A DNA stretch of 64,000 nt from Streptomyces sp. NBC_00513 (GTDB lineage Bacteria > Actinomycetota > Actinomycetes > Streptomycetales > Streptomycetaceae), in assembly GCF_041431415.1 (NCBI RefSeq), contig NZ_CP107845.1, positions 1,674,001 to 1,738,000 of the forward strand. The letters run 5' to 3'. The notes beneath the pieces are model-generated. The model had not been told where the DNA came from. It did no database searches and saw only the letters and a list, made by a program, of their open reading frames with translations. A program made the position numbers and the translations under genes. Within the stretch, counting starts at the first letter, position 1, and each line of letters begins with the position of its first letter. Of the stretch, positions 31,112 through 57,963 are shown one piece after another.

Positions 31112-32323
31112 CTACGGGACGTTGGTCCCGAACCGGGCGGGCCGGGGCGTCCGGGCTGGGGCTTCGAGACCTGCGATCGGGGACGGTCCGCGGTCCGCCG
31201 GGCGCCGGTGGACGGGCCCTCGGCGCTCGGCGAGCGGGAACAGCGATCCGCCGTGCCGGACCGCCGTGAACTCGGCGGCGATGGCCAGGGCGGTCTCCTC
31301 GGGCGTTCCCCCGCCGAGGTCCAGGCCGATCGGTGAGCGCAATCGGGCCAGGGCGGCTTCCGTCACCCCCTCCTCCCGCAGCCGTCCGGCCCGCTCGGTG
31401 TGGGTGCGCCGGGACCCCATGGCTCCCACGTAGGCCAAGGGCAGCCCGAGGGCCAGGGCGAGCAGCGGGACGTCGAACTTGGCGTCGTGGGTCAGTACGC
31501 AGACCGCCGTACGGGCGTCCAGGCGCCCGGCCTCCCATTCCGCGGCGAGGTGCCGGTGCGGCCAGTCGACGATCACCTCGTCGGCGTCCGGGAAGCGGGC
31601 CCGCGTGGTGAAGACGGGCCGGGCGTCGCAGACGGTGACCCGGTGCCCGAGGAAGGCACCGATCCGCGCCAGGGCGGCGGCGAAGTCGATGGCCCCGTAG
31701 ACGATCAGCCGGGGGCGTTCGGCGGCCGATTCGACGAGCAGGGTCAGCGGCTCTCCGCACAGCCCGCCGGCCGTCCCGAGCTCCGCGGTGCCGGTCCGCC
31801 CGGCCAGCAGGAGGGCCCGGACCCGCCGCGCGGCGCTCTCGTCGAGGGCCGGGGCGCCGCCGAGGCAGCCCTGGTAGGAACCGTCGGCGTGGACGGCCAG
31901 CGCCCGACCGAGCTGTTCCGGCGGCCCGGCCACCACCCTGGCCAGCGCGGCCCGCGCCCCGCCGACGGCGGCGTCGAGGACCGTGCGCAGGACGGGGCGC
32001 AGGGGGTCCTGTCCGCGCACCGGGGTGACGAGCACGTCCAGGACTCCACCGCAGGTCAGGCCGATCGCGAAGGCGTCGTCGTCGCTGTAGCCGAAGCGGT
32101 GCACGCCGCCTTCGCCGGAGGTGATCGCGTCGAGGCACAGTGCGTGCACGGCGGATTCCACGCAGCCGCCGGAGAGGGAGCCGAGGGCGGTGCCGGCGGC
32201 GTCCACGGCCAGTGAGGCGCCCGGTCCGCGCGGCGCGCTGCCGCTGACGGCGACCACGGTGGCCAGGGCGAACTCCCGCCGCTCGGCACACCACGCGCGT
32301 AGTTCCGCGGCGATGTCGAGCAT
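31112..32323 (-). CDS. XdhC/CoxI-family molybdenum hydroxylase maturation factor
   Basis: A 403-residue protein. The N-terminal XdhC domain is marked by SGSAPRGPGASL and GSLSGGCVESAVH, with Cys in the latter that handles the molybdenum ligand. The C-terminal Rossmann domain is marked by RLIVYGAIDFAAALARIGAF, YVGAMGSRRTH and LGGGTPEETALAIAAE. XdhC proteins bind molybdenum cofactor, aid its sulfuration and deliver it to xanthine-dehydrogenase-type enzymes. The client is presumably the three-subunit enzyme 5 kb upstream in the same directon. The ATG shares a base with the stop of the transposase-like gene (TGATG). Confidence 0.9.
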   Translation of the reverse strand: MLDIAAELRAWCAERREFALATVVAVSGSAPRGPGASLAVDAAGTALGSLSGGCVESAVHALCLDAITSGEGGVHRFGYSDDDAFAIGLTCGGVLDVLVTPVRGQDPLRPVLRTVLDAAVGGARAALARVVAGPPEQLGRALAVHADGSYQGCLGGAPALDESAARRVRALLLAGRTGTAELGTAGGLCGEPLTLLVESAAERPRLIVYGAIDFAAALARIGAFLGHRVTVCDARPVFTTRARFPDADEVIVDWPHRHLAAEWEAGRLDARTAVCVLTHDAKFDVPLLALALGLPLAYVGAMGSRRTHTERAGRLREEGVTEAALARLRSPIGLDLGGGTPEETALAIAAEFTAVRHGGSLFPLAERRGPVHRRPADRGPSPIAGLEAPARTPRPARFGTNVP

Positions 32324-33612
32324 CAGCGGATGTACTCGCGTCTTGTGGTCTGCCCGGGGATGAGGGGGCGCGGCGGCAGTACGGCGGGAGGCCGGCCGGG
32401 GGTCCTCGGCGGCCCCGGGTAGGGCAGGGGGGTGTGCGGTTCGGGGGCCCGGCCGGTGGCGCAGCCGAGCAGCTGTGCGGCGTGGGCGACGCTCGCGAGG
32501 GTGGCGTGGTGGTGCCAGCCCCGGAAGGAGCGGCCCTCGAAGTCGCGGATGCCGACGGGTTCGCAGGTCTCGGCGAAGTCCAGGGAGACCCGGTCGGTGA
32601 GTTTGGCGAGCAGGAAGAGCTGGGCGAGCGGCCGGTCCCCGATGTTCGTGATCCAGAACTCGGACGGCAGCAGGGCGGCTTCCGTCCAGGCTCCCACGAG
32701 CAGCAGTGGGGTGGGCGGGGCCGGCGGCGGCCGGTCCTCGGCGACGCCGGCGAGGATGGCGGCGGAGGTCAGCAGGGTCACCGCCCCCTCGGTGCGGCCG
32801 TGCCGGGTCCATTCCACGACGCGCCGCTGGGAGCGCAGCGAGTCGATGAGTTCGCGGGCGGGCGCGGTGTGCGGTCCGGGTTTGTGGCGGCCCGCGCCGC
32901 CGAAGGAGACGGGCAGCGACCCGTCGACCTTGAAGACGAACGGGATGTCCTGGAGGGCGAAGGACTCGACGCAGTAGGGCAGTTCGGCGTTGGACACCTC
33001 CATCACCACGGGGCGGCGCTGGAGTTGCCAGGTGGCGGCCATGCGCTGGACGGCGTGTACGGCGTCCTGTGCGGGGGTGAGAGAGCGTGCGGTGTCCGGG
33101 ATGCCCGCCCGTGTGCGGCGCAGCAGTTCACTGGTCCAGGGCCCGGGGAGGGTGAGGGTCCATTCGACGGGGAAGCTTGCTTCGCTGGAGGCGAGCCAGA
33201 TCCCGCCGGCCTGCTGACAGTTGGCGGTGCGGCCCAGTTGGGGGACGAACTGGCGGCCGACGCCCACGGAGGCGTCGCCGGCCTTCTCGATGACCATGGG
33301 CTGGACCACCCAGGCCAGGGGGCGCTGGGCGGTCCGTTCGAGGTGCTGTGCGAGGGACCGTCTGACGGGGGTCCAGTCCCACGGTGATTTGCTGATGAAC
33401 TGCTGGAGACTTTGTTCGACGGAACTGGCCCCGGTTCCGGCGATGTTACGGATTGTTTTCTTCCCGGTGGTCCGCACCAGTCCATTCAGATAAACGCGGG
33501 CCCAGTTTCGCTGGTCCCGCCGGGGTAATGACTCGAAGAAGAGCGAGATCAGTACGTCGATCAAATCGGAGATTTCCTTCGTGGAATCCTCCGGCAGGAC
33601 TACGCGAGCCAT
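32323..33612 (-). CDS. IS701-like DDE transposase relative, apparently catalytically dead (domesticated)
   Basis: A 429-residue protein with the overall IS701 transposase layout. An N-terminal region (FFESLPRRDQRNWARVYL) is followed by a segment aligned to the first catalytic block, reading WVVQPMVIEKAG..SVGVGRQF where active IS701 enzymes have a DDTGF-type motif before KKG. The next block reads VVMEVSNAEL where an ADxxYG motif is expected. The ending GWHHHATLASVAHAAQLL is IS701-like. The first Asp appears lost and the second replaced. No terminal inverted repeats or target duplications were found at its edges. It has a normal GGGGAGG ribosome site and overlaps xdhC by one base, suggesting a maintained cellular gene, perhaps regulatory. 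Confidence 0.75.
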   Translation of the reverse strand: MARVVLPEDSTKEISDLIDVLISLFFESLPRRDQRNWARVYLNGLVRTTGKKTIRNIAGTGASSVEQSLQQFISKSPWDWTPVRRSLAQHLERTAQRPLAWVVQPMVIEKAGDASVGVGRQFVPQLGRTANCQQAGGIWLASSEASFPVEWTLTLPGPWTSELLRRTRAGIPDTARSLTPAQDAVHAVQRMAATWQLQRRPVVMEVSNAELPYCVESFALQDIPFVFKVDGSLPVSFGGAGRHKPGPHTAPARELIDSLRSQRRVVEWTRHGRTEGAVTLLTSAAILAGVAEDRPPPAPPTPLLLVGAWTEAALLPSEFWITNIGDRPLAQLFLLAKLTDRVSLDFAETCEPVGIRDFEGRSFRGWHHHATLASVAHAAQLLGCATGRAPEPHTPLPYPGPPRTPGRPPAVLPPRPLIPGQTTRREYIR

Positions 33613-33684
33613 CTGGGCCTCCCCCGCGACCAGCTAGATCCAATACCCTACTTGACCGCGAAGAACGGCCGTAGGCCGAGACGG

Positions 33685-34332
33685 CTACTTCCTGAGGTCG
33701 CCGGCGGTTTCGAGCCGCTCTTCCTCTACCACGAGCGGGATGGGGATCTGGTTCGCCGCGTAGTAGAGCGCGATCAGGAAGTGTGCGACAAGAGTGAGTG
33801 GTGCGGAGTAGAACGACAAGAGCACTGTGAGGGGATACGCGATCGCGCCGAGGCCGAACCGCATCCGGGTCGCCCGCGCGCCCTCCTTGTCCACGCGTTC
33901 GTGGAACAGGTGGCCGACCCGTGTGACATACCACCAGAAGGCCAGGAAGGCCAAGGCGTAGAGCACGGTGATGGAACTGTAGAGGACTGCTGCGGCGTTG
34001 GCCGAACCGCCTTCCTCGACGAGGTGTTCGGCGAGCACGGTGGTGGTGTAGGGGATCACCGACACCACCATCAGCACCAGGAGGTTCAGGAACAACAGCG
34101 GTCGGTCGACGCGCTTGAGGTGACTGAAGATCGTGTGGTGGTTGACCCACATGACGCCGATGATCAGGAAACTCACCACGTATGCGGCGTAGTGCGGCCA
34201 CTGCTCCCCGACACCGTGCCAGAAGTCGCTTCCGGTTTCCTCCGGAACCTTTAGTTCCAGAACAAGGATCGTGATGACGATGGCGAATACGCCGTCACTG
34301 AATGCCTCGACCCGCGCGGTTTCGCGTTCCAT
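33685..34332 (-). CDS. TMEM175-family potassium channel-like membrane protein (DUF1211)
   Basis: A 215-residue membrane protein with six hydrophobic segments. The signature RVEAFSDGVFAIVITILVLE at the N-terminus carries the FSD motif of bacterial TMEM175 channels. WPHYAAYVVSFLIIGVMWVNHH is the second conserved block. Bacterial TMEM175 proteins form tetrameric potassium-selective channels of low selectivity. The ATG follows AGGGGAGGT. A strong hairpin separates it from the gene upstream, so it may start its own transcript with the transposase-like and xdhC genes. Confidence 0.88.
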   Translation of the reverse strand: MERETARVEAFSDGVFAIVITILVLELKVPEETGSDFWHGVGEQWPHYAAYVVSFLIIGVMWVNHHTIFSHLKRVDRPLLFLNLLVLMVVSVIPYTTTVLAEHLVEEGGSANAAAVLYSSITVLYALAFLAFWWYVTRVGHLFHERVDKEGARATRMRFGLGAIAYPLTVLLSFYSAPLTLVAHFLIALYYAANQIPIPLVVEEERLETAGDLRK

Positions 34333-34361
34333 GACCTCCCCTTTGCCATTCGGTCGAACAT

Positions 34362-34391
34362 GCGGAGAGGGCGCCGTCGCGCCCTCCCCGC
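34362..34391 (-). terminator. Hairpin terminator within the long minus-strand gene array
   Basis: GCGGAGAGGGCGC (34362-34374) pairs with GCGCCCTCCCCGC (34379-34391) with one mismatch and a CGTC loop, between the NTF2-like gene and the TMEM175-like gene. It probably ends or weakens the upstream operon. Confidence 0.75.
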
Positions 34392-34414
34392 ACACGCTAC
34401 CCAGATATTCGGGT

Positions 34415-34756
34415 TCAGCCGCCGAATCCGGCGGTCTGGCGCCAGATCCGGCCATCGCGGACCACGAGTGTCCCGAAAGCGTGCTCCGGTTCGCCGTCGA
34501 GGCTCATGATCGCCCGGTAGAAGATGGTGTCCTCGGTCTCGATGTACTCCTGGAGTTCGACCAGGGTGGGCTTGAGGGTGAGATAGCCGGTGAGCGCCTC
34601 CCGAACGGCCTCGATGCCCACCGCGGTCGCCTCGAAGCGCAACAGGGCCGCGTCGTCGGTGTAGTTCTTCATCACCGCTTCGATGTCCAGGGCGGCCAGC
34701 GCCTCCATCTGGCGGACGAAGACCGGGTGCAGTGTGGCGATGTCGTACTTGGGCAT
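34415..34756 (-). CDS. NTF2/SnoaL-like small protein
   Basis: A 113-residue alpha+beta cone-fold protein starting MPKYDIATLHPVFVRQMEAL, with the typical helix then VMKNYTDDAALLRFEATAVGIEAVREAL and the C-terminal sheet FGTLVVRDGRIWRQTAGFGG (in pieces). Such proteins are cyclases, isomerases or ligand-binding modules; no catalytic acid could be assigned. It lies 13 bases after the histidine kinase gene and is the last gene before the hairpin. Confidence 0.78.
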   Translation of the reverse strand: MPKYDIATLHPVFVRQMEALAALDIEAVMKNYTDDAALLRFEATAVGIEAVREALTGYLTLKPTLVELQEYIETEDTIFYRAIMSLDGEPEHAFGTLVVRDGRIWRQTAGFGG

Positions 34757-34769: not shown

Positions 34770-36263
34770 TCAACTGGTGAGGTTCCGCGCGGCGGTTGAT
34801 GCCGGCGGCGTGGCGAGCGGCAGCCGGACGACCATCCGGGTCTCGCCGACGCGGGAGCGGGCCGCGATCGACCCGTGGTGGCGCTGGGTCACGATCCGGT
34901 AGCTGAGGTGCAGCCCCAGGCCCGTGCCCTTGCCCACGTCCTTGGTGGTGTAGAAGGGTTCGAAGATCCGCGGCAGGACGTCCTCGGGGATGCCCCGGCC
35001 GGTGTCGATGATCTCCACGACCATGCAGACGCCCTCGGCGAAGGCGCGCAGCGTGAGCGTGCCCGCGCCGTCCATGGCCTCGGCGGCGTTGTCGACCAGG
35101 TTGGTCCATACCTGGTTCAACTCTCCTGGATAGCCCGTCAGTTCGGGCAGTTCCTCGCCGTACGCGCGCACGATGGTGATGCCGGCGAGCTTGGCGCGCA
35201 GCACGACCAGCGTGTTCTCCAGTCCCTCGGTCACCGCGAAGCGCTGCTCGGGGGCCCGGTCGAGATTGGCGTAGTCGCGGGTCGCCGCCACGAGTTGGGA
35301 GATCCGCGGACCGGCCGCCCGCAGCTCGGCGGCCAGCGACCGGATCTCCAGCAGCGCCGCCAGATGGTCCAGGGCGGCGGGCAGGGCGGGCTCGCCGATC
35401 CCCTCCAGTCGTGACCACAACCAGGCCCGCCCCACTCCGAGGTCGGAGACGCCTGACCCGAGCAGACCCGGCCGTTCGGCGCCGGCGTCCTCGGCCCAGT
35501 CGGCGATCTCCTCCTCGTCGTCGGCCTGGGCCAGAGGGTCGCTGGTCTCCGTCGGCGGCAGTTTGTCCAGTTCCTCGGCCAGTCGGTCGAGGACGGCGCG
35601 CTCGGCTCCGTCGGCGGCGGCGCCCCAGGCGTGGGCGGTGAGGGTCAGCCGTTCCAGGGCGGGGGCCAGTTCCTGCGCGGCCCGGGCCACGGCGGCGGCC
35701 GGGTTGTTCAGTTCGTGCGCGAGTCCCGCGGCGAGGGTGCCGAGCGCCTCCACCGTGGCCCGTTTGCGGGCCTGTACCTCGGAGGACTTGATCCGCCAGG
35801 CCAGCACGGGGATGAGTACGGCGGCCACCCCGTGGCAGCGGGTCAGCATCTCGAAGAAGACCGCCTTCGGGTAGCCGACGACGGTGGTCGCCGGTCCGCT
35901 CGCGGCGGCGGTCGCCACGTACGAGCCGTCCGTCAGCAGCGGCAGTTCCCCGGTGAACCGGTGCGCGGCGGTGGGCTTGCCGTCGTGTTCCTCGGCCGCC
36001 GCGCTCTCCTCCTCGGTCGAGTGTCGGGTGAGCACCTCCTCCCGCCCGTCGACCACCTTGGTGACGACCAGCCCGCCGGCGAGCAGGACGTGGAAGCACG
36101 TGGCCTCGTCGCCGTCGCGGAAGAGGATCTGCCCGTCGGCGAGGACGCGGGGTTCGGAGACCGACACCAGCCAGTCGAGTTGCTCCCCGGTGAGTCCTTC
36201 GAAGATCTCCAGTTCGTGCAGGGCCGATCGCAGTTCCGCGGTGTTCCACGGTCCGGTGTTCAC
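34770..36263 (-). CDS. Soluble sensor histidine kinase with N-terminal cyclic-nucleotide-binding domain
   Basis: A 497-residue cytoplasmic protein without membrane helices. A cNMP-binding/CRP-like domain (about 15-150) has LADGQILFRDGDEATCFHVL and a 25-residue acidic insertion. A HisKA-type helix carries AAGLAHELNNPAAAVARAA (phosphoacceptor His), and a long helical domain separates it from the HATPase domain with NQVWTNLVDNAAEAMDG, DTGRGIP and GKGTGLGLHLSYRI. No response regulator is adjacent, so it is an orphan; it may instead modulate the neighbouring partner-switch. The GTG overlaps the MFS stop as GTGA. The upstream open frame is read-through. Confidence 0.88.
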   Translation of the reverse strand: MNTGPWNTAELRSALHELEIFEGLTGEQLDWLVSVSEPRVLADGQILFRDGDEATCFHVLLAGGLVVTKVVDGREEVLTRHSTEEESAAAEEHDGKPTAAHRFTGELPLLTDGSYVATAAASGPATTVVGYPKAVFFEMLTRCHGVAAVLIPVLAWRIKSSEVQARKRATVEALGTLAAGLAHELNNPAAAVARAAQELAPALERLTLTAHAWGAAADGAERAVLDRLAEELDKLPPTETSDPLAQADDEEEIADWAEDAGAERPGLLGSGVSDLGVGRAWLWSRLEGIGEPALPAALDHLAALLEIRSLAAELRAAGPRISQLVAATRDYANLDRAPEQRFAVTEGLENTLVVLRAKLAGITIVRAYGEELPELTGYPGELNQVWTNLVDNAAEAMDGAGTLTLRAFAEGVCMVVEIIDTGRGIPEDVLPRIFEPFYTTKDVGKGTGLGLHLSYRIVTQRHHGSIAARSRVGETRMVVRLPLATPPASTAARNLTS

Positions 36264-37516
36264 GGTGTGCTCCCCTCGGCCCTGACGCGGGCGGACAGCC
36301 GCAGGGTGACGATCAGGGCCAGGGCGCACACCCCGGCGACGGCGGCCATGAAGCCGACCGAGGTGCGGTGCAGTCCGTGGATGTTGGTCAGCATTCCGGC
36401 GAGGACCGCCGGGACGCTCATGGCGAGGTACGCGAAGACGTAGACGGCGGCGGTCAGTTCGCCCCGGTGTGCGGGGTCCGCCAGGGCGCTGAGCGCCCGG
36501 AAGGAGCCGAGGAAGGCCGCGCCCCAGCCGCAGCCGAGGACGGCCGTGGCGACGAGGAACACCGGCGCCGAACCGAGACCCAGCGCCAGCAGGACCAGGG
36601 CCAGCCCGGCGAGGAGTCCGCACAGTCCCAGCACGGCGGTGCGCAGCGCCTCGGTGCGGCCGAGGAGCAGTTGGGCGCCGGTGGCGGCGCCCGCGAGCAG
36701 GGCCACGGTGGCTCCGCCGACGAGGTAGTTGGTGCTCCGGAGCAGGGACAGGGCCAGGTGCGGCCCGAGCGAGAGGTAGAAGCCGCCGACGGACCAGACG
36801 GCCACGATGGTCAGGACGAGCACGGCGAACCGGCCGCGGGAGGCGGCCGGCACCCGGATCCGGTGCGGGACCACGCGGAACCGCCCACCGGCCCCGGGAG
36901 CGCTCTCACGCATCCGGACCACGCCCGCAAGCGTGACGGCGAACGCGCCGATCAGCAGGAGGTAGCTCAGCACGGTCGGGGCGGGCGCGTACTGGACGAG
37001 CAGCCCGGCCCCGAGCCCGCCGAGTCCGATGCCCACGGTCGGTCCCGCGCTGTTGACCTGGGCGCCGAGCGCCGGCCGCGAGGGCGGGGTGAGTTCCAGC
37101 AGGGCGGCGCCCATGGCGCCGGTGGCCAGGCCCACGGCCAGGCCCTGCACGGCGCGGGCGGCGAGCAGCAGCGCCAGTCCCTGGGCCCCGGCGAACAGGG
37201 CCATGGAGACGATCGCCAGGATCAGTGCGGCGCCGAGCATGGGGCGCCGTCCGAGGGTGTCGGACAGCGACCCGAACAGCAGGAGTCCGCCGAGCACGGT
37301 GACGGCGTACAGGGCGAAGACCACCGTGATGGTGCCGGAGGACAGGCCCCACCGCTGCTGGTAGAGCACGTAGAGGGCGGAGGGAACGGAGGAGGAGAGC
37401 ATCAGCAGGACGAGGATCGCGCCCACCACGCGGAAGCCGGGGCCCGTTGTCGCTCGGGCGGGCGGGCCGGTCGGCTGCACGATGTCCCCCGCGGTCGTCT
37501 CGGTCGGTTCGGCCAC
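36260..37516 (-). CDS. MFS transporter
   Basis: A 418-residue twelve-helix transporter with the loop motif GSLSDTLGRRPML and drug-exporter-like helix 5 sequence (GPTVGIGLGGLGAGLLVQY). It resembles DHA1-type efflux carriers. The GTG at 37516 has GGGGGAG eight bases upstream and directly follows the molybdenum-enzyme FAD-subunit gene; the frame further upstream is read-through. The overlap with the downstream histidine kinase suggests coordinated synthesis. It could export the product of, or import the substrate for, the surrounding oxidoreductases. Confidence 0.85.
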   Translation of the reverse strand: MAEPTETTAGDIVQPTGPPARATTGPGFRVVGAILVLLMLSSSVPSALYVLYQQRWGLSSGTITVVFALYAVTVLGGLLLFGSLSDTLGRRPMLGAALILAIVSMALFAGAQGLALLLAARAVQGLAVGLATGAMGAALLELTPPSRPALGAQVNSAGPTVGIGLGGLGAGLLVQYAPAPTVLSYLLLIGAFAVTLAGVVRMRESAPGAGGRFRVVPHRIRVPAASRGRFAVLVLTIVAVWSVGGFYLSLGPHLALSLLRSTNYLVGGATVALLAGAATGAQLLLGRTEALRTAVLGLCGLLAGLALVLLALGLGSAPVFLVATAVLGCGWGAAFLGSFRALSALADPAHRGELTAAVYVFAYLAMSVPAVLAGMLTNIHGLHRTSVGFMAAVAGVCALALIVTLRLSARVRAEGSTP

Positions 37517-37545: not shown

Positions 37546-38367
37546 TCAGGCGAGTGCCTGGGCCCTCGCCAGGGCGCGGGCGGTGAGCACTCCCGCGAGG
37601 TGGCCGAGGTACTCGGCCGAGGTGCCGCGTCCCGGGACGAACAGCTCCCGGGGTTCGGCCCGGAACGCCGCGAGGACGGTGTCCGCGGTGTACGGGCCTT
37701 CGCGCAGCCGTTCCTCGACGCCGCGCGGGCGCAGGGCGCGGGCGGTGGCCCCGGTGACCGCGATCCGCGGCCCGTCCGGGGTGATCCGTACGGCGACGGC
37801 GCACAGCGGGTAGCGGGTGGCGCGGTCCGGGGCCTTCTCGAAGGCGGCGGCCCGCCCGCCGGGCGGGAGCAGCAGTGCGGTGATCACCGCGCCGTCGGGC
37901 ACCCCGGAGACGGCGAGCCGCTCGGCGGGGAGGGTGGAGCGGCCCGCGGGGCCGGCGAGTTCGACGACGGCGCCCGCGGCGATGGCGGCGACCGGCAGGT
38001 CGGTGGCGCGTCCGCCGGCGGCCAGGTTCCCGCCGGCGGTCCCCAGGTTGCGGACCTGGGGGTCGCCGTTGGCGCGGGCGGCGGCCGCCAGCTCGGGTGC
38101 CTCGGCCGACACCAGCGGGTGCGCGGCCAGTTCGGCGAGCGTGGTCAGCGCTCCGATGCGCAGCCCGTCGGCGGTGCGTGCGATGCCCCGGAGTTCCTCC
38201 AGGTGCCGTACGTCGACCAGCAGCCGGGCCCGGTCGGCGCCGGAGCGCAGGTCGGGCAGCAGGCTCTGGCCGCCGGCGAGGACCCGGGCGCCCGGGGCGC
38301 CGGCGAGCAGGGTCAGGGCCTCGTCGAGGGCGACGGGCCGTACGTAGTCGAATTCGGTGAGGATCAC
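37546..38367 (-). CDS. Molybdenum hydroxylase FAD-binding medium subunit (CoxM/XdhB type)
   Basis: A 273-residue FAD subunit. It shows FDYVRPVALDEALTLLA at the start, the FAD motifs VLAGGQSLLPDLRSGADR and GDPQVRNLGTAGGNLAAGGRATDLP, and the C-terminal CO-dehydrogenase flavoprotein domain with TGATARALRP. It passes electrons from the iron-sulfur subunit to NAD or another acceptor. The GTG overlaps the large-subunit stop as GTGA. Confidence 0.92.
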   Translation of the reverse strand: MILTEFDYVRPVALDEALTLLAGAPGARVLAGGQSLLPDLRSGADRARLLVDVRHLEELRGIARTADGLRIGALTTLAELAAHPLVSAEAPELAAAARANGDPQVRNLGTAGGNLAAGGRATDLPVAAIAAGAVVELAGPAGRSTLPAERLAVSGVPDGAVITALLLPPGGRAAAFEKAPDRATRYPLCAVAVRITPDGPRIAVTGATARALRPRGVEERLREGPYTADTVLAAFRAEPRELFVPGRGTSAEYLGHLAGVLTARALARAQALA

Positions 38368-40774: not shown

Positions 40775-41323
40775 TCAACCCTCCTGTCCGGAAGCGGCGG
40801 TCACGGCGTCGGCCATGGCGTCGCAGACGGCGTCCGTCCCGGGGGCCGCGGCCCGGGCCGAGGCGCAGGCGCGCTGCACGCCGCGCACGACGCCGTGGTA
40901 GCCGGTGCAGCGGCACAGGTTCCCGGTGAGCCACTCGCGGATCTCGGGTTCGGTGGGGGCGTCGCCGTCCGCCGTGTTCTCCACGAGTTCGCCCAGGGCC
41001 ATGACCATGCCGGGCGTGCAGAAGCCGCACTGGGTGCCGTGCTCCTGCCGCAGGGCCTCCTGGAGGCCGGTCAGTTCGCCGCCCGGGGTGGCGACGCCCT
41101 CGATGGTGGTCACCTCGGAGCCGGCGGCGGCGACGGTGAGGACCAGGCAGCTCTTCGCGGACCTGCCGTCGAGTCGCACGACGCACGAGCCGCACTGTCC
41201 GGTGTCGCAGCCGACCTTGGTGCCGGTCAGTCCGAGGCCGTCGCGGAGCCGCTCCACGAGGAGTTCGTTCGGCTCGGCGGTGAATTCCCTGGGTCTTCCG
41301 TTGACATTCAGTGTCAGATCCAT
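40775..41323 (-). CDS. Molybdenum hydroxylase 2Fe-2S small subunit (CoxS type)
   Basis: A 182-residue iron-sulfur subunit with both clusters intact: plant-type GCDTGQCGSCVVRLDG, and the alpha-helical QCGFCTPGMVMAL with NLCRCTGYHGVV. The C-terminus carries about 30 extra Ala-rich residues. The ATG lies inside the end of the F420-reductase-like gene (ten-base overlap). The stop is five bases before the large-subunit ATG. Confidence 0.93.
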   Translation of the reverse strand: MDLTLNVNGRPREFTAEPNELLVERLRDGLGLTGTKVGCDTGQCGSCVVRLDGRSAKSCLVLTVAAAGSEVTTIEGVATPGGELTGLQEALRQEHGTQCGFCTPGMVMALGELVENTADGDAPTEPEIREWLTGNLCRCTGYHGVVRGVQRACASARAAAPGTDAVCDAMADAVTAASGQEG

Positions 41324-46739: not shown

Positions 46740-47047
46740 TCATCGGTGAGGATGATGCTCCGGTCCAGTCCGGCCGTGCGGATGGTCCGGGAGACGGGCT
46801 CGATGGCGCCGACCACCTTGATGGTGACGTGGTCGGCGACCTTCTGCTGGGCGAAGACCAGTGAGCGCAGTCCGGCGCTCGCCATGTAGCCGACGCCGGC
46901 CATCCGGATCTCGACGGTGCTGGTGCCGTGACCGGCGGCCTTCTCGATGGTCTGGTGGAACTCCGGTGCGGTCTTGGCGTCCAGCTCGCCCGTCAGTTCG
47001 ATCACGGTGGTGTCGCCCTCGATGCTCAGGGACACGGAAAGCGGCAT
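46736..47047 (-). CDS. STAS-domain anti-sigma factor antagonist
   Basis: A 103-residue single-domain STAS protein. The phosphorylatable Ser lies in GVGYMASAGLRSLVFAQQKV, in the usual position. It is the likely substrate of the overlapping RsbW-like kinase and of the PP2C phosphatase. It starts 16 bases after glgX with an AAGGAG site. Confidence 0.92.
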   Translation of the reverse strand: MPLSVSLSIEGDTTVIELTGELDAKTAPEFHQTIEKAAGHGTSTVEIRMAGVGYMASAGLRSLVFAQQKVADHVTIKVVGAIEPVSRTIRTAGLDRSIILTDE

Positions 47048-47063: not shown

Positions 47064-49207
<2,144 letters not shown>

Positions 49208-49211
<4 letters not shown>

Positions 49212-49558
49212 CGCGCGGCCTTCGCCTTGGCCTTGGCCTCGGCGGCCGCGGCCTCGCCGGCCGAGAAGAAGTCGAGGAAGCCGGTGGCCGACATGACGAA
49301 CCGGACCTCCTCGCTCACCCCGTACAGGGTCACCGCGACGCCGGCGTGCTGCGCCTCGCGGTAGACGACGAGCAGGGTGCGCAGACCCGCGCTGGAGACG
49401 TAGTCGACGGCGGTGAGGTCGATGCGCAGTGGCCGGCCCTCGCGGACCAGCGGCAGCAGGGCCTGGAGCAGTGCGCCCGAGGTCTCGCTGTTGATCTCGC
49501 CGGTGGCGACGAGCACGGTGGCCGTCTTGTTCCGACGTTCCTTCACACTCAGTGTCAT
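49208..49558 (-). CDS. STAS-domain anti-sigma factor antagonist (second copy)
   Basis: A 116-residue STAS protein with VDYVSSAGLRTLLVVYREA (Ser doublet at the phosphorylation site) and an unusual Ala/Lys/Glu-rich helical tail (GEAAAAEAKAKAKAAR). The tail is absent from the other STAS protein and could mediate interaction. The stop overlaps the glgX start as ATGA. Confidence 0.9.
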
Positions 49559-51419: not shown

Positions 51420-51420
51420 G

Positions 51421-51879
51421 TCATGCACCGTCCGTTTCGTTGAAGGGCCCACCGGGCTGTCGCGGCGTGCCGTGCTCGTCCTCGTATCCCTGGCTGACCT
51501 CGACGATCACCCCGTCGGGGTCGCGGACCCACACGGTCCGCCAGCCGTGGATGAAGTCGTCGAAGTCCATTGGTCCCAGGGTCACTTCGGCCGCGTCCCC
51601 CAGCTCCGCCAGGAACGCGTCCACGTCGTCGGTCTGGAAGGCCAGGTGACGCAGCCGCCCGGGCGCCTGGGGCCCGTCGTCGTGGGCGGGGATCGCCGGC
51701 TCCGTGCCGGCCGCGAAGAGTTCCAGGTACGCGTCCCCCTGGCGCAGGAAGACGATCGTCGACTCTCCGAGGTCGACCACGCGGGCCCGCCGGAAGCCGA
51801 AGTACCGGGTGTAGAACTCCTCGGTGGCCTTCTGGTCGGCGCAGTTGAGGCCGACGTGCGACCAGACCACGGCCGCCAT
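51421..51879 (-). CDS. VOC-superfamily (glyoxalase-like) protein
   Basis: A 152-residue vicinal-oxygen-chelate protein with two beta-alpha-beta-beta-beta units: WSHVGLNCADQKATEEFYTRYFGF near the start (metal His) and RHLAFQTDDVDAF with a later VRDPDGVIVEVSQ (metal Glu). This resembles glyoxalase I or lactoylglutathione-lyase-like members. Its start shares a base with the stop of the DJ-1 gene (TGATG). Confidence 0.87.
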   Translation of the reverse strand: MAAVVWSHVGLNCADQKATEEFYTRYFGFRRARVVDLGESTIVFLRQGDAYLELFAAGTEPAIPAHDDGPQAPGRLRHLAFQTDDVDAFLAELGDAAEVTLGPMDFDDFIHGWRTVWVRDPDGVIVEVSQGYEDEHGTPRQPGGPFNETDGA

Positions 51880-52490
51880 CAGTCGGCGCCCCGGCCGCGG
51901 CCGGCCGCGATCAGCTCGATGATCCGCCGGGCGAAGAGGTGGTGGTGGGCGCCGGTGCGGCCGGTGACCAGGTCGCCGTCGACGACCACGTCCTCGTCCA
52001 CGTACTGGGCGCCCATGTTCCGGACGTCACCGACGAGGTTGTTGTGGCAGACGACCTTGCGACCGCGGATCTTGTCCGGGATCGAGGCGGCCAGCCACAT
52101 GCCGTGGCAGATGATCCCCTTGAGGACCGTCGGTTCCTCGAAGGCCCTGCGCAGCAGCTCCGTCGCCGGCGCGAGCACGTCCACGTCCTCGGTGTAGCGC
52201 AGCCGGTCGGCCACCATGCCCGAGGGCACGATGATCGCCGCGTACCGGCGCAGTTCCTCGTCGGTCAGCCCCTCCAGGGAGCGGTCGGCGGTGAACGGCG
52301 CCCGGTACTCGTGCCCGGTGAAGGTGAGGGAGTCGTTGCCCCAGAGCCGGGTCAGGAAGTCGACCTCGGCGCCCTCCTCGGCGAAGCGGTGTCGGTAGTA
52401 GAAGATCTCCGGTTCGTAGAAGTCGCTCTCGACCAGGACCGCGATCCGGGTCCCGGACAGCGCTCCCTCGCGCGGTACGGCGTCAGGCAC
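51879..52490 (-). CDS. DJ-1/PfpI-superfamily protein (protease I-like)
   Basis: A 203-residue protein with RIAVLVESDFYEPEIFYYRHRF (acidic residue near the nucleophile) and the elbow VLKGIICHGMWLAASIP with catalytic Cys. HNNLVGDVRNMGAQYVDEDVVVDGDLVTGR (in parts) is the family's C-terminal signature. Related proteins are YhbO/PfpI deglycases. GTG overlaps the GMC oxidoreductase stop by eight bases. Confidence 0.87.
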   Translation of the reverse strand: MPDAVPREGALSGTRIAVLVESDFYEPEIFYYRHRFAEEGAEVDFLTRLWGNDSLTFTGHEYRAPFTADRSLEGLTDEELRRYAAIIVPSGMVADRLRYTEDVDVLAPATELLRRAFEEPTVLKGIICHGMWLAASIPDKIRGRKVVCHNNLVGDVRNMGAQYVDEDVVVDGDLVTGRTGAHHHLFARRIIELIAAGRGRGAD

Positions 52491-54087
52491 GGGACTCTCC
52501 CTTGAGGAAGTCCGCCGCGCGCTCGGCGATCATCGCGATGGCGGTGTGGCAGTTGCCCGACGGGACGGCGGGCATCACGCTCGCGTCGACGACGCGCAGG
52601 TTGCGCACGCCGTGCACCCGCAGCTCGGGGTCGACGACGGAGAGGTCGTCGATGCCCATGCGGCAGGAGCCGGCCTGGTGGTGGTAGCTCTCGGACTTCC
52701 GCTTCACGAAGGTCCGCAGGTCCTCGTCGCTCACGAAGCCGGGACCGGGCTGGAGTTCCTGCTTGTACCAGGGCGAGAAGGCGGAGGTCGCGAAGAGCTC
52801 CCGGGCGATCTTGACGCCCTGCACCATCCGTTCCAGGTCCCAGCGGTCGCCCAGGTAGTTCGGGTCGATCAGCGGGTGGGCCAGCGGGTCGGCGCTCGCC
52901 AGCCTGATCCAGCCGCGCGAGACGGGGCGTACGACGCCCGGCAGGATGCTGACCGTGTTCGGGTGGTCCTGGCCGACGATCACGTCGAACGGCACGTGGA
53001 CGAAGGCGATCTGCAGGTCGGGGGCGGGCAGGCCGGGCCGCGAGGACAGGAACAGAGCGCTCTCGGAGAGGTTTTGTGTCGGCGCCGGGAGCGGCTGGGT
53101 GACCTCGGCCATCAGCCCGGTCAGCACGTGGTTGTGGAAGTTCTCCCCGACGCCGGGCAGGGCCGCGGTGACCTCGATGCCGTGGGCGCGCAGTTGCTCC
53201 GGGTGCCCGATGCCGGAGAGCAGCAGCAGTTTCGGGGACTCGATGGCCCCCGCCGCCACGACGACCTCCCGGCGGGCGCGTGCGGTGTGTGTCCCGGGCG
53301 AGCCGGAGTCGCCGTGGCCGTCGCGGACGGTGCGGCCGGGGAACTCCGCGGGCGGGGCGAGGCGGGTGTACTCCACGCCCGTGCAGGTGTTCCCGTCGAA
53401 CAGCAGCCGGGTGCTCTGCGCATGGGTGCGCAGGGTCAGGTTGGGGCGGTCGAGCGCCGGTTCGAGGTAGGCGGCGAGGGCGCCCTGCCGGCGGCCGTCG
53501 GCCACGTCGATGTGGTGCCAGCCGGTGCCGAACAGTCCGCGCCGGGGGCCGTCGGTGTTGAAGTCGGCGATCTCCTCGTGGCCGAGTTCCACGGCCGCGT
53601 CGATGAAGGCGCGGGAGGTCGGGTTGGGGTGGTGCCGGCCGGCGTGCGTGATCCGCTGGGGGCCCCGGGTGCCGGTGGTCGCCGCGGTGGCGTCCTCCTG
53701 TCCCTCCAGCCGGGCGAACCAGGGCAGTACGTCCTCGTACGACCAGCCGGCCGCGCCCTGGTAGGCCCAGTTGTCGAAGTCCGAGGCGTGGCCCCGGACG
53801 TGCATCATGATGTAGAGGTTGCTGCTGCCGCCGGGGGCCTTGCCGCGGGGTTCGTAGGTACGGCGGCCGTCGAGTCCGGGCTGCGGGACGCTGGTGTACC
53901 CCCAGTCGAGGGGTCCGCCGAGCAGCTTGTACCAGGAGGAGGGGTCGTCCACCTCGGGCGGGATGCGCGGGCCTCCGGCCTCCAGGACGAGGACGGTGAC
54001 GTCGGGGTCCTCGGAGAGCCGGTTGGCGAGCACGCTGCCGGCGGTGCCGGCGCCGACCACGATGTAGTCGTATGCGTCCACGGTCAT
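52483..54087 (-). CDS. GMC-family FAD oxidoreductase (choline/alcohol dehydrogenase type)
   Basis: A 534-residue flavoprotein. The N-terminal ADP-binding motif is YIVVGAGTAGSVLANRLSED, with LEAGG; GGSSNLYIMMHVRG matches GMC signature 1, and AAGAIESPKLLLLSGIG signature 2. The catalytic His is in SYHHQAGSCRMG and the second residue lies in the terminal SGNCHTAIAMIAE, where many relatives read NPN. It oxidises an alcohol to an aldehyde or ketone. Together with three SnoaL-like proteins and a ThDP enzyme upstream, it looks like part of a short biosynthetic or catabolic pathway. Confidence 0.92.
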   Translation of the reverse strand: MTVDAYDYIVVGAGTAGSVLANRLSEDPDVTVLVLEAGGPRIPPEVDDPSSWYKLLGGPLDWGYTSVPQPGLDGRRTYEPRGKAPGGSSNLYIMMHVRGHASDFDNWAYQGAAGWSYEDVLPWFARLEGQEDATAATTGTRGPQRITHAGRHHPNPTSRAFIDAAVELGHEEIADFNTDGPRRGLFGTGWHHIDVADGRRQGALAAYLEPALDRPNLTLRTHAQSTRLLFDGNTCTGVEYTRLAPPAEFPGRTVRDGHGDSGSPGTHTARARREVVVAAGAIESPKLLLLSGIGHPEQLRAHGIEVTAALPGVGENFHNHVLTGLMAEVTQPLPAPTQNLSESALFLSSRPGLPAPDLQIAFVHVPFDVIVGQDHPNTVSILPGVVRPVSRGWIRLASADPLAHPLIDPNYLGDRWDLERMVQGVKIARELFATSAFSPWYKQELQPGPGFVSDEDLRTFVKRKSESYHHQAGSCRMGIDDLSVVDPELRVHGVRNLRVVDASVMPAVPSGNCHTAIAMIAERAADFLKGESRA

Positions 54088-54099: not shown

Positions 54100-54492
54100 T
54101 CAGTCCCGGCTCAGGACTTGGAAGGGGACCGTGTCGTGGTGGTTCGCCATGTAGGCGATCTTTCCGTCCACGATCCGGAAGAAGTTCATGACCTCGGCCT
54201 CGATGGCCCCGCCGTTCGCCGCGACGGCGGTCAGGTGGGACACGGCCGCGGCCTTCTCCCCGTCGACGAGGAAGTGCACGGGCTCGTTCCGGAAGACCCG
54301 GTACATCGTCCCCATGCCCTTCATCATCGAGCGCAGGGTCTCCAGGCCCTCGATGTGGCCGGCGAGCTGCTCGTCCATGACCTGGTCGTCGGCGAACAGG
54401 TCGCACCAGCGGTCCCAGTCACCGGCATTGGCGTACTCGTAGTACTTCCGAAGGATCTCGGTCGAGCTCTCTCGTGCGTCCGACGCGCTCAT
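54100..54492 (-). CDS. SnoaL/NTF2-like protein A
   Basis: A 130-residue cone-fold protein (LRKYYEYANAGDWDRWCDLFADDQVMDEQLAGHIEG in parts; final VMNFFRIVDGKIAYMANHHD). It carries an Asp/His-rich pocket suited to general acid-base chemistry, but no specific activity can be assigned. It is the third of three adjacent SnoaL-like genes, 12 bases from each neighbour. Confidence 0.8.
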   Translation of the reverse strand: MSASDARESSTEILRKYYEYANAGDWDRWCDLFADDQVMDEQLAGHIEGLETLRSMMKGMGTMYRVFRNEPVHFLVDGEKAAAVSHLTAVAANGGAIEAEVMNFFRIVDGKIAYMANHHDTVPFQVLSRD

Positions 54493-54504: not shown

Positions 54505-54960
54505 CTATCGGTCCCTGCGGGTTCCGTCCGGTGCGAACGGCGCCCAGAACTGGCTGAACGCGGAAGCCGTGTCGCCGAAGAGCCCGTCGCGGCCCTCGAC
54601 GATCCGGCCGTCGCGCCACCGCATGAAGTGAAAGACCGGGTAGTCCATCCGCTCGTACGGGGACGTGCTCGCCGGGTCCGCGCCGTCCCGCAGGGCGACG
54701 TTGCGGCACACGTCGGCGCTGCAGTCCTCGCCGACGAGCACCGCCTGGACGTCCATCCGGAAGGTGCCGCCGGTGAGCTTGTGGGTCTGCCCCATCAGCT
54801 CCAGGAAGGCGTCGAGGCTCTCGTACCAGCCGGCCAGCGGGTGGTTGCCCGGCACCAGCCAGCGCAGGTCCTCGGAGTAGTACTCCAGGACGCGCGCCCG
54901 GTCCCCGGAGCCCAGGGCCCGGTAGGCCGCCTCGACCCGCTCCCGTGTCACTTCGGTCAT
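54505..54960 (-). CDS. SnoaL/NTF2-like protein B
   Basis: A 151-residue SnoaL-like protein (VEAAYRALGSGDRARVLEYYSEDLRWLVPGNHPLAG in parts; VFHFMRWRDGRIVEGRD). It resembles the ketosteroid-isomerase-like polyketide cyclase fold, with conserved Trp and His near PGNHPL. It is not a close duplicate of its neighbours; the three share fold but little sequence. Confidence 0.8.
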   Translation of the reverse strand: MTEVTRERVEAAYRALGSGDRARVLEYYSEDLRWLVPGNHPLAGWYESLDAFLELMGQTHKLTGGTFRMDVQAVLVGEDCSADVCRNVALRDGADPASTSPYERMDYPVFHFMRWRDGRIVEGRDGLFGDTASAFSQFWAPFAPDGTRRDR

Positions 54961-54988: not shown

Positions 54989-55420
54989 TCACAGGGCGCC
55001 GGAACCGGGCATCGGCGCCAGCTCGTTGACGGTGTACTGCTTGATCAGCGGCCCGTCCGGGCCTGCCACCAGGGTCCAGGTCTGGTCGGCGTCGAAGCCG
55101 AGCCACTGGCTGCGGGCGGCCGGCGGGTCCCAGATCTTGGCCTGCCAGTTCACGAGGACCCGGACGATCGCCCGGTCGCCCTCGATGACGGGCTCGACCT
55201 TGGTGACGGTGTGGACCTCGTCGAAGAACCGGTGGGTGACGGCCGCGTACCAGCGGCCGAAGCCCTCGTGCCCGAGGAAGGTGTCCTCGGGCACCTTGAA
55301 CTCCAGGTCCTCCGTGACGAGGGCGAGCACCCGGGCCGGCGGAAGGTGCTGGTCCAGTGCCACGTACCAGTCCTCGGTGAAGCTGCGGATCGCGTCCTCG
55401 GTCAGCCGTTCGGCGGGCAT
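54989..55420 (-). CDS. SnoaL/NTF2-like protein C
   Basis: A 143-residue SnoaL-like protein starting MPAERLTEDAIRSFTEDWY, with DLEFKVPEDTFLGHEGFGRWY and IKQYTVNELAPMPGSG. ATG at 55420 follows GGAGGAGACC; a longer frame to 55768 is read-through of the ThDP enzyme gene. It is the first of three in transcription order. Confidence 0.8.
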   Translation of the reverse strand: MPAERLTEDAIRSFTEDWYVALDQHLPPARVLALVTEDLEFKVPEDTFLGHEGFGRWYAAVTHRFFDEVHTVTKVEPVIEGDRAIVRVLVNWQAKIWDPPAARSQWLGFDADQTWTLVAGPDGPLIKQYTVNELAPMPGSGAL

Positions 55421-57129: not shown

Positions 57130-57138
57130 GAATTCCCC

Positions 57139-57963
57139 CTACCACCCGTAACGGGTGAGACCGTCCTCCAGCACTTCCACGATCTTCTGCCCCGTCAAAT
57201 AGGAATCGGGGGTGGAACGACCCGTCACGAACGGGTAGTCGACGATCACCGACAGGGGGTGGCCGAAATTCCCGTGGTACGCGCCGTCCGGACCGGTGGC
57301 ATCGCGCAGGATGTATTCGAGCGGGTACGGCGGCGGCCCCATGTTGAAGTCGGTGCCGAGGAATCCGGTGCCGTCCTTGTAGTCGTATTCCTTGCAGTGG
57401 CCGGTCACGTGCTTGCCCCGGATGATGCTCTCGCGGTCGCCCCAGTCGCGGGCGAAGGCCAGGCAGGCGACCCCGTAGCACTCGGCGGCCACGACCTTGC
57501 CGGCGTTCTTGAAGGCCAGGATCAGGGCGTGTACGCGTTCGTTGTTGGCGAGGTCCGCGATCGGCCCGCTGCCTCCCACCACGAGGATCGCGTCGAATCC
57601 GGCGATCTCCTCCTGGAGTCGGTCCAGATCGCGGTGGTACTGCTCCAGCCGGGGCAGGTAGTCCGCGTCGCTGGTGTACGGGCGCTCGGGGGCCCAGGCC
57701 TCGATGTCGATCGGCGAGTCCAGTCGGCTCGACTGCTCGAACTCGCGGCCGAGCCGGGCGTTCTCCTCGGTGGTCACCGAACGGCCCAGCGGTGGGTCGA
57801 CGTAGTGCGCGTCGAGGCTCGGCGGGAGGGCGTGCGCCCGCTTTCCGGTGGGTGTGGCGAATACGACTTCGTAGCCCCGCTCGTCGAACTTCGATACGGG
57901 CCCGATCAATTCCTCGGCCCAGTAACCGTGTTCGGAGACAATGACCAGAATCTTTCTGCTCAC
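57139..57963 (-). CDS. DJ-1/PfpI-superfamily protein, first gene of the long directon
   Basis: A 274-residue protein with KILVIVSEHGYWAEELIGPV at the N-terminus, LVVGGSGPIADLANNERVHAL, and the elbow GKVVAAECYGVACLAF (nucleophile Cys in AECYG). It is larger than PfpI and closer to HchA-like members with an inserted segment (PERPYTSDADYLPRLEQYHRD). GTG at 57963 follows GGAGGAATCC; the frame to 58128 is rejected because it runs through the operator repeats. Promoter and inverted repeats lie just upstream. Confidence 0.85.
   Translation of the reverse strand: MSRKILVIVSEHGYWAEELIGPVSKFDERGYEVVFATPTGKRAHALPPSLDAHYVDPPLGRSVTTEENARLGREFEQSSRLDSPIDIEAWAPERPYTSDADYLPRLEQYHRDLDRLQEEIAGFDAILVVGGSGPIADLANNERVHALILAFKNAGKVVAAECYGVACLAFARDWGDRESIIRGKHVTGHCKEYDYKDGTGFLGTDFNMGPPPYPLEYILRDATGPDGAYHGNFGHPLSVIVDYPFVTGRSTPDSYLTGQKIVEVLEDGLTRYGW

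What the first reader, a model, noticed from the sequence alone, without database searches (positions are those of the whole stretch)
31112..57963. Twenty-seven-gene, 27-kb minus-strand directon joining aldehyde/redox enzymes, a partner-switch and a molybdenum hydroxylase
Seen: 27 consecutive genes on one strand, no gap above 82 bases, thirteen directly overlapping or abutting junctions, one hairpin at 34362-34391, and an operator array at the head. Members include three different DJ-1 proteins, a ThDP decarboxylase-like enzyme, a GMC oxidase, three SnoaL-like proteins, a VOC protein, an AGE-like sugar enzyme, GlgX, a full STAS/RsbW/PP2C set with a MinD-like ATPase, ALDH, an F420-reductase-like protein and a three-subunit Mo hydroxylase with its maturation factor. 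Inference: a reactive-carbonyl or sugar-aldehyde pathway whose expression or activity is governed by stress-type partner switching. I know of no described system with this composition.
Basis: partly seen in the sequence, partly recalled or inferred. Interest (0 to 1): 0.9.

Follow-up and report, generated by a model that had tools for sequence, protein, structure and literature searches.

The report
Glycogen partner-switch cluster with dead transposase
A long block of Streptomyces genes turns out to be built around a glycogen-linked control module also found in cyanobacteria, enlarged here with aldehyde-oxidising enzymes and with a former transposase gene that has lost its cutting residues but was kept in every close relative checked.

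Summary
The block is real: 27 minus-strand genes (31112-58005), largest gap 82 bases. The same genes in the same order recur in the S. lavendulae group and, without ALDH and the transporter, in Sphaerisporangium melleum. In many relatives it sits with GlgE, GlgB and maltokinase-like genes, so alpha-glucan metabolism is better supported than carbonyl chemistry. In more divergent Streptomyces, AGE and GlgX stay together but the switch was mostly not found (RsbW/PP2C in 2 of 15 loci). Targets, operator-binding protein and substrates are unknown.

The parts
58047..58133 (.). Head operator array: four ACTTCRTGASST-like sites (58047-58058 +, 58080-58091 -, 58101-58112 -, 58122-58133 +) between the divergent zf-UBP and DJ-1 genes
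   Evidence: at least one site matching my pattern in 26 of 26 aligned heads
58263..58535 (+). zf-UBP protein, divergent neighbour kept with the cluster
   Evidence: PF02148; 26 of 26 type A loci, 1 of 54 others
58532..60262 (+). Response-regulator/pyridine-nucleotide-disulphide oxidoreductase fusion, divergent neighbour
   Evidence: PF00072 and PF07992; 26 of 26 type A loci, 5 of 54 others
57139..58005 (-). DJ1a, ThiJ-like/PfpI
   Evidence: conserved C176
55483..57129 (-). ThDP enzyme, benzoylformate-decarboxylase-like
54989..55420 (-). SnoaL-like A
54505..54960 (-). SnoaL-like B
54100..54492 (-). SnoaL-like C
52483..54087 (-). GMC oxidoreductase, alcohol/choline-oxidase-like
   Evidence: H470 and N512 conserved
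51879..52490 (-). DJ1b, PfpI-like; core member
   Evidence: 74 of 80 loci
51421..51879 (-). VOC/glyoxalase-fold protein
49596..51419 (-). AGE-fold sugar isomerase-like protein with extra N- and C-terminal beta parts; core member
   Evidence: K377 in place of the Glu of sugar 2-epimerases in 97 of 97
49208..49558 (-). STAS1, anti-anti-sigma-type protein
   Evidence: 78 of 80 loci
47064..49211 (-). GlgX glycogen debranching enzyme, between the two STAS genes
   Evidence: TIGR02100 695 bits over cut-off 641; 79 of 80 loci
46736..47047 (-). STAS2
   Evidence: 74 of 80
46266..46694 (-). RsbW-type kinase/anti-sigma
   Evidence: E41 and N45 conserved; 70 of 80
45025..46284 (-). PP2C phosphatase with N-terminal receiver-like domain, RssB-like layout (IcfG counterpart)
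   Evidence: no Asp in the window protein at the presumed acceptor place
44278..45024 (-). MinD/ParA-like ATPase
   Evidence: 53 of 80
43468..44208 (-). DJ1c, HchA/glyoxalase-III-like
41951..43435 (-). Aldehyde dehydrogenase
41314..41919 (-). F420/NADP oxidoreductase-like Rossmann protein
40775..41323 (-). Mo hydroxylase [2Fe-2S] subunit
38364..40769 (-). Mo hydroxylase catalytic subunit, loop AQRGSGR, GAKGAGE present
37546..38367 (-). Mo hydroxylase FAD subunit
36260..37516 (-). MFS transporter
34770..36263 (-). Cyclic-nucleotide-binding domain plus histidine-kinase-type ATPase
34415..34756 (-). SnoaL-like D
34360..34393 (-). Conserved RNA hairpin after SnoaL D (terminator- or processing-type)
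33685..34332 (-). TMEM175-type potassium channel-like protein
   Evidence: PF06736
33687..33698 (+). Further operator site ACTTCCTGAGGT, at the stop codon of the TMEM175 gene, upstream of the IS701-like gene
   Evidence: site with at most 1 mismatch in 27 of 27 sequences
33643..33666 (-). Promoter-like GTT-N15-GGGTAT, 31 bases before the IS701-like start
   Evidence: GGGTA kept in 23 of 27 by reading
32323..33612 (-). IS701-like protein without the DD motif of transposases (domesticated transposase)
31112..32323 (-). XdhC-type aldehyde oxidoreductase maturation factor, overlapping the IS701-like gene by one base

Best explanation
An accessory, partly horizontally moved metabolic-control island built on an icfG-type core. 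SHOWN: the core (DJ-1, AGE-like enzyme, STAS, GlgX, STAS, RsbW kinase, PP2C, often a MinD-like ATPase) is a syntenic unit found from cyanobacteria to Streptomyces, and in the window's clade it is fused to a decarboxylase/SnoaL/GMC/VOC front and an aldehyde-oxidising Mo-hydroxylase tail. INFERRED mechanism: RsbW phosphorylates the STAS proteins and so keeps its own partner bound; the PP2C, switched through its receiver-like domain (which lacks the phospho-acceptor Asp and so probably binds a partner or ligand), dephosphorylates them; free STAS protein then takes RsbW off its target, most likely an unlinked SigB-family sigma factor, less likely an enzyme of the block such as GlgX. The output is mobilisation of alpha-glucan by GlgX, with the AGE-like isomerase, DJ-1, ALDH and Mo hydroxylase handling the reducing sugars and aldehydes that arise. 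Expression comes from at least two promoters, the head and one before the IS701-like gene, which share one operator motif.
For: Synteny: AGE-STAS1-GlgX consecutive in 77 of 80 loci, AGE-STAS1-GlgX-STAS2 in 72, followed by RsbW-PP2C in 62 or PP2C-RsbW in 5 (the 80 are the best of 576 confirmed matches of a capped scan). Identity matrices of AGE and GlgX, PP2C, RsbW correlate at r 0.90, 0.93, 0.90 (n 51, 47, 47; 0 of 999 permutations reach them). Synechocystis slr1852-1862 has the same kinds of members; Slr1861 is kinase of Slr1856, Slr1859 and Ssr1600 and anti-SigC, IcfG dephosphorylates Slr1856 (PMC12329169 abstract and passages; PMC8670252 passages). Kinase, phosphatase and STAS residues are kept. 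GlgE, GlgB and maltokinase-like genes in 18, 22 and 15 of 54 non-type-A loci; one such island on a linear plasmid. DJ1c-CoxS-CoxL beside the core in a different arrangement in two Streptosporangium loci (L066, L072). Operator at head and before the IS701-like gene.
Against: Among 15 more divergent Streptomyces loci (AGE 55-61% in 13 of them) GlgX lies near AGE in 12, but RsbW and PP2C were found in only 2, the two with AGE above 70%; some stretches end at contig edges (L133, L140) or were cut short (L132), and window queries may miss distant relatives. So AGE-GlgX is wider than the switch. No sigma gene lies near the core: 0 hits in 96 loci, though only 7 of my 15 sigma queries were real sigma sequences. 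The AGE-like enzyme has Lys for the Glu of sugar 2-epimerases, so its reaction may differ. DJ1a correlates poorly with AGE (r 0.24, 35 of 999 permutations reach it). GlgE, GlgB and maltokinase-like genes are absent beside the core in type A (0 of 26). The correlation test has no control with unlinked genes, so shared species descent contributes. No expression data.
Confidence: 0.55

Rival explanations
1. Only the icfG-type core is a working unit. The front and tail are unrelated genes that accumulated beside it and are kept in one young clade by shared descent.
For: Tail genes are rare outside type A: CoxL in 2 of 54, ALDH in 1 of 54 other loci; DJ1a-AGE correlation weak; XdhC not found in 3 of the 7 tails not chosen by XdhC.
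Against: Sphaerisporangium melleum, another family, carries most of the same island with head operator, hairpin, tail operator and IS701-like gene; CoxS/CoxL/DJ1c lie beside the core in another arrangement in Streptosporangium; one operator motif at head and tail.
Confidence: 0.28
2. A biosynthetic gene cluster for a small specialised metabolite, with SnoaL proteins, ThDP enzyme, GMC oxidase and VOC protein as tailoring enzymes and the partner switch as pathway regulator.
For: SnoaL, ThDP and GMC families are common in such clusters (general knowledge); on plasmid NZ_CP108009.1 the sister island lies about 17 kb from condensation-domain and phosphopantetheinyl transferase genes and about 7 kb from a butyrolactone-type pair.
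Against: Pfam shows no PKS, NRPS or terpene enzyme and no glycosyltransferase among the 27; the core with GlgX reaches cyanobacteria.
Confidence: 0.1
3. The IS701-like gene is an ordinary insertion sequence that happened to land in the directon.
For: NCBIfam calls it an IS701 transposase well above cut-off, 286 against 150 bits.
Against: Same place in 26 of 26 tails; spacer to the TMEM175 gene 71-73 bases and overlap with XdhC of one base in 18 of 18 Streptomyces tails measured; catalytic acids gone; median dN/dS 0.178, maximum 0.279 over 324 pairs; no second copy above 43% identity in the genome.
Confidence: 0.02

Closest known systems
icfG operon of Synechocystis sp. PCC 6803 (slr1852-slr1862)
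   Same: AGE-like, STAS, GlgX, STAS, PP2C and RsbW in one block (papers); S. salina locus L071 shows DJ1b (32%), AGE (62%), STAS, GlgX (62%), STAS, PP2C and RsbW hits to window proteins
   Different: PP2C and RsbW are in the other order; the cyanobacterial phosphatases resemble the window's only in the phosphatase domain, not in the N-terminal part (my reading); no hit to Mo hydroxylase, ALDH, MFS, TMEM175 or IS701-like genes in L071; type A has about 20 more genes
GlgE pathway genes of Streptomyces (glgE, glgB, maltokinase pep2)
   Same: Found beside the same core in the sister type (L154 and others)
   Different: Absent beside the core in type A; the window's genome has a GlgE gene elsewhere, at G000:C1:5311011
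RssB of Pseudomonas aeruginosa (receiver plus PP2C, PDB 3eq2)
   Same: Best fold match of the PP2C gene product and best sequence match in PDB
   Different: 22% identity; no Asp at the presumed acceptor place in the window protein
Sugar 2-epimerases and D-mannose isomerase (AGE superfamily)
   Different: Extra N- and C-terminal beta parts; Lys377 in place of Glu; curated NCBIfam cut-off not reached
IS701-family transposases
   Same: Whole-length homology, 286 bits
   Different: Catalytic acids lost, single copy, fixed position, purifying selection

Membership tests
icfG-type partner-switch/glycogen cluster | GlgX gene between two STAS genes, with AGE-like gene next to them | tested here: met
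   Window order AGE-STAS1-GlgX-STAS2; 72 of 80 loci
icfG-type partner-switch/glycogen cluster | RsbW kinase and PP2C phosphatase in the same unit with functional residues | tested here: met
   Residues conserved; both genes in the window, each in 70 of 80 loci
icfG-type partner-switch/glycogen cluster | Same members in a Synechocystis locus | tested here: met
   L071 (S. salina): DJ1b, AGE, STAS, GlgX, STAS, PP2C, RsbW; PP2C/RsbW order swapped. PCC 6803 itself only through papers
icfG-type partner-switch/glycogen cluster | RsbW phosphorylates the STAS proteins and binds a sigma factor; effect on carbon metabolism | not testable with these tools
   Reported for Slr1861 and SigC in PMC12329169 (abstract and passages read)
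IS701 transposase (mobile) | Family profile above curated cut-off | tested here: met
   NF033540 286 bits, cut-off 150
IS701 transposase (mobile) | Acidic catalytic residues (identity of the catalytic Asp recalled) | tested here: not met
   [IV]DD in 5 of the 7 plasmid-borne relatives fetched; VQP in the window; none of the cluster-linked proteins keeps both Asp
IS701 transposase (mobile) | Stand-alone element, variable position, several copies | tested here: not met
   One-base overlap with XdhC, constant spacers, 26 of 26 tails, one copy
Aerobic CO dehydrogenase (form I CoxL) | AYRCSFR active-site loop (recalled) and family cut-off | tested here: not met
   Loop is AQRGSGR; TIGR02416 636 bits against cut-off 991
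AGE-superfamily sugar 2-epimerase/isomerase | (alpha/alpha)6 AGE fold | tested here: met
AGE-superfamily sugar 2-epimerase/isomerase | Glu in the GHxxE motif of characterised 2-epimerases | tested here: not met
   GHNLK, Lys in 97 of 97, against GHNSE in 8h1k
AGE-superfamily sugar 2-epimerase/isomerase | Epimerase or isomerase activity | not testable with these tools
   no assay

The most novel reading that the evidence does not exclude
The catalytically dead IS701-like protein is the missing DNA-binding regulator of the island. It binds the ACTTCRTGASST sites at the cluster head and before its own gene, so a former transposase has become an autoregulated operon regulator tied to a partner switch that controls glycogen and aldehyde metabolism.
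Probability: 0.2. Interest if true: 0.85.

Novelty: new variant of a known kind. Interest (0 to 1): 0.6.

Why it matters
The icfG operon is described, in the papers I saw, from Synechocystis as a hub for carbon and glucose control. Finding the same unit, with the same order around GlgX, in Streptomyces, other actinomycetes, a Chloroflexi MAG, a Trueperaceae MAG and a Terrimicrobiaceae MAG, and beside GlgE-pathway genes, suggests that its general job is control of alpha-glucan stores rather than of photosynthesis, and it offers a genetically tractable host for finding the target of the switch. The retained dead transposase with a shared operator is a concrete, cheap test of whether a transposase became a transcription regulator.

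Tried and rejected
IS insertion: rejected. CO dehydrogenase: rejected by loop and cut-off, although the best PDB sequence match is a CoxL. Linked sigma factor: none found, but 8 of the 15 query ORFs were picked wrongly, so only 7 queries were valid (my reading of that output). Genome-wide regulon of the operator: not supported, 11 exact matches against 7 for the reversed control pattern. SigB-type promoters: the recalled consensus GNNT-N14-16-GGGTAY has 2 matches in the window, none in the block, against 8.9 in shuffles; the looser GTT form has 4 against 2.5. Operator before IS701-like genes of the sister type: no exact site seen. Known RNA families in 28000-61000: none at gathering score. Papers on an actinobacterial icfG cluster or a domesticated IS701: in the library, with the terms, three searches gave no paper and the 11 papers listed by the others did not look relevant by title and start of abstract (open-licence papers only; not opened except PMC6520443). 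PMC6520443 was followed because its kinase is a maltokinase paralogue; its described cluster has other members (passages). AprG, an AGE-fold transaldolase, made me ask whether Lys377 is a Schiff-base lysine; no paper held, left open.


Full report
OBSERVATION. Gene calling by codon-position GC gives 27 consecutive minus-strand genes from 31112 to 58005, largest gap 82 bases, 9 junctions at or below zero. The run goes on to 28403 (29 genes); the next longest run in the window has 6. The window lies at 1.674-1.738 Mb of contig C1 of an 8.62-Mb assembly; relatives are Streptomyces.

CONSERVATION IN CLOSE RELATIVES. 26 of the 80 (L001-L024, L049, L065) carry the window's type, here called type A; L001 is 98-100% identical and may be the same species. 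Within the stretch each locus holds, the gene order is the window's, apart from L049 (Sphaerisporangium melleum), where no ALDH hit appears and about 1.5 kb lies between MinD and DJ1c. For the tail I first fetched 19 regions: 18 of the 23 genomes, chosen because a close XdhC match was placed there, and one (G012). All 19 have cNMP-HATPase, SnoaL D, TMEM175, IS701-like and XdhC in order; 17 of 19 show MFS (S. melleum, L121, lacks it; L130 is cut off before it). Of the five genomes left out, two are Streptosporangium (not type A) and three were followed next: seven further type A genomes (L011, L015, L018, L019, L020, L022, L024) have the IS701-like gene in 7 of 7 and XdhC in 4 of 7, once on a separate contig; in L155, L156 and L160 no XdhC hit lies between the IS701-like gene and the next gene of the window. 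Prevalence of the AGE-like gene at E 1e-100: 27 of 199 Streptomyces genomes, 12 of them at 90% identity or more including the window's own; 1 of 296 in a phylum-wide draw, the window's own genome.

THE CORE IS THE icfG UNIT. Over the 80 loci: STAS1 78, GlgX 79, DJ1b 74, STAS2 74, RsbW 70, PP2C 70, MinD-like 53. Consecutive on one strand: AGE-STAS1-GlgX 77; AGE-STAS1-GlgX-STAS2 72; then RsbW-PP2C 62, or PP2C-RsbW 5. Of the eight loci without STAS1-GlgX-STAS2, five (L043, L050, L063, L068, L079) end within or just after the stretch in question. The range covers Actinomycetota, Cyanobacteria, a Trueperaceae MAG, a Chloroflexi MAG and a Terrimicrobiaceae MAG. Synechocystis salina (L071) has DJ1b (32%), AGE (62%), STAS, GlgX (62%), STAS, PP2C, RsbW. 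In Synechocystis 6803 the icfG operon slr1852-1862 holds Slr1855 (annotated N-acetylglucosamine 2-epimerase), Slr1856 (STAS), Slr1857 (GlgX/isoamylase), Slr1859 (STAS), IcfG (PP2C, Slr1860) and Slr1861 (kinase, anti-SigC) (PMC12329169: abstract and passages; PMC8670252: passages). Shi 1999 is cited through those papers only; it is not held. Identity matrices correlate: AGE-GlgX r 0.90, AGE-PP2C 0.93, AGE-RsbW 0.90, AGE-STAS2 0.83, AGE-ThDP 0.79, AGE-DJ1b 0.59 (each 0 of 999 permutations), AGE-DJ1a 0.24 (35 of 999); no unlinked control was run.

LIMIT OF THE CORE. From the 27 Streptomyces genomes I fetched 15 with lower AGE identity. With window queries GlgX lies near AGE in 12 of 15, but RsbW and PP2C were found in only 2 (L145, L146, AGE 73-74%). 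Six (L133, L134, L135, L137, L138, L141) show GlgX, AGE and an IS701-like gene and no other window gene. L132 and L140 are short or cut. So the AGE-GlgX pair is wider than the switch, or the switch there is too divergent for these queries.

SHELLS. Among the 54 non-type-A loci of the 80: GlgB 22, GlgE 18, maltokinase-like 15, EthD 21. The annotated plasmid island L154 (NZ_CP108009.1) reads transposase (IS701-like), maltokinase, FAD oxidoreductase, EthD, glutamine-amidotransferase-domain protein (DJ1a relative), ThDP, DJ-1, AGE, STAS, GlgX, anti-sigma factor antagonist, ATP-binding protein, SpoIIE phosphatase, MinD, GlgE, GlgB, TrkA-C, cation:proton antiporter. Type A has none of GlgE, GlgB and maltokinase beside the core; the window's genome has a GlgE gene elsewhere. 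CoxS, CoxL and a DJ1c relative lie on the other side of the core, in opposite orientation, in two Streptosporangium loci (L066, L072). These facts favour alpha-glucan metabolism as the common theme and aldehyde oxidation as an addition.

THE DEAD TRANSPOSASE. The protein scores 286 bits against NF033540 (cut-off 150). I fetched seven plasmid-borne relatives. Five (L147-L151) keep [IV]DD; the other two, one of them the gene of the sister island, do not. The window reads VQP there, ME for D at the second acidic site, and FAETC in place of YxELK; no cluster-linked protein keeps both Asp of the first motif. Two paralogues elsewhere in the window's genome (L082, L083) have lost them too, so decayed IS701-like proteins are not unique to this island. 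Which Asp is catalytic is recalled; six proteins of the divergent Streptomyces loci (L133-L135, L137, L138, L141) and L139 keep the first one. Median dN/dS among 26 type A sequences, S. melleum left out, is 0.178 (324 pairs, maximum 0.279), like five neighbour genes (medians 0.083-0.205). IS701-like genes also lie within the stored stretch in 26 of 54 non-type-A loci and in several divergent Streptomyces loci near AGE; the window's genome has 6 matches at E 0.001 or better in 8.6 Mb, so chance at that density would give about one in 54 loci. Many of the 26 are one clade, so they are not independent; Planobispora, Sphaerisporangium, Actinoplanes, Nonomuraea and Streptosporangium give separate arrangements.

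REGULATION. The head carries four ACTTCRTGASST-like sites. In 26 of 26 aligned heads at least one site matches my search pattern; the full set of four degenerates in many. Among exact matches in the whole genome only the head groups such sites. A further site with at most one mismatch begins 85-88 bases before the IS701-like gene in 26 of 26 Streptomyces sequences (window included) and 75 bases before it in S. melleum, 27 of 27. In the window it overlaps the last codons of the TMEM175 gene, so coding constraint may contribute; in S. melleum the measured TMEM175-to-IS701 distance is 646 bases, so there coding does not seem to explain it. Upstream (250 bases) of DJ1a in 38 other loci the relaxed motif (one mismatch, both strands counted) occurs at 0.83 per kb against 0.086 per kb in whole loci, but only 4 of 38 loci carry it (L030, L048, L061, L074). 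Between SnoaL D and TMEM175 an 18-pair hairpin is kept, with 6 pairs doubly changed, in 17 of the 20 sequences at hand (three were not put in). A GTT-N15-GGGTAT element follows the tail operator; GGGTA is kept in 23 of 27 by my reading, yet such elements are not enriched in the window, and the likeness to SigB-type promoters is recalled.

HOW IT WORKS. Shown: shared core, conserved residues, conserved regulatory sites. Inferred: a kinase/phosphatase partner switch controlling a sigma factor or enzyme so that GlgX-driven glucan breakdown is matched to stress or carbon state, with aldehyde-handling enzymes added in this clade. The regulator of the operator is unknown. Pfam shows no transcription-factor family among the 27 proteins, which makes the transposase descendant a candidate. 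Against it: L059 and L060 have only weak head sites (2 mismatches) and no IS701-like gene in the stored stretch, and no exact site was seen before IS701-like genes of the sister type.

VERDICT. Known kind in its core, new variant as a whole; the domesticated IS701-like gene with a shared operator is the most surprising part.

Noticed in passing
58263-60262 and 34770-36263: The response-regulator/disulphide-oxidoreductase and cNMP-HATPase genes recur near the core in other genera (one or both in L030, L044-L046, L059, L061, L062, L074), suggesting a separate redox signalling set tied to the island.
   Followed up: partly
L154 (NZ_CP108009.1 222000-265000): The sister-type island is carried on a linear Streptomyces plasmid, about 17 kb from condensation-domain genes and about 7 kb from a butyrolactone-type regulator pair.
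   Followed up: partly
L047 and L065: Streptomyces sp. ISL-87 holds both island types, at about 74% and 94% AGE identity to the window.
   Followed up: no
L049: Sphaerisporangium melleum carries type A (AGE 85%) while three other Sphaerisporangium species have another type at 74% and S. album one at 64%, which points to horizontal transfer.
   Followed up: no
43468-44208 and 32323-33612: Among the genes checked TTA codons occur only in DJ1c (codon 240) and the IS701-like gene (codon 29), so bldA could limit both.
   Followed up: no
33685-34332; L154:40360-42097: Potassium or cation transport recurs: a TMEM175-type channel in type A, TrkA-C plus cation:proton antiporter in the sister type.
   Followed up: no
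G000:C1:7112246-7117606: Another GlgX relative of the window's genome lies about 3.3 kb from a Sigma70 region 3 match.
   Followed up: no
49596-51419: AprG, an AGE-fold transaldolase, is among the structural matches; the invariant Lys377 could hint at aldol chemistry rather than epimerisation.
   Followed up: partly
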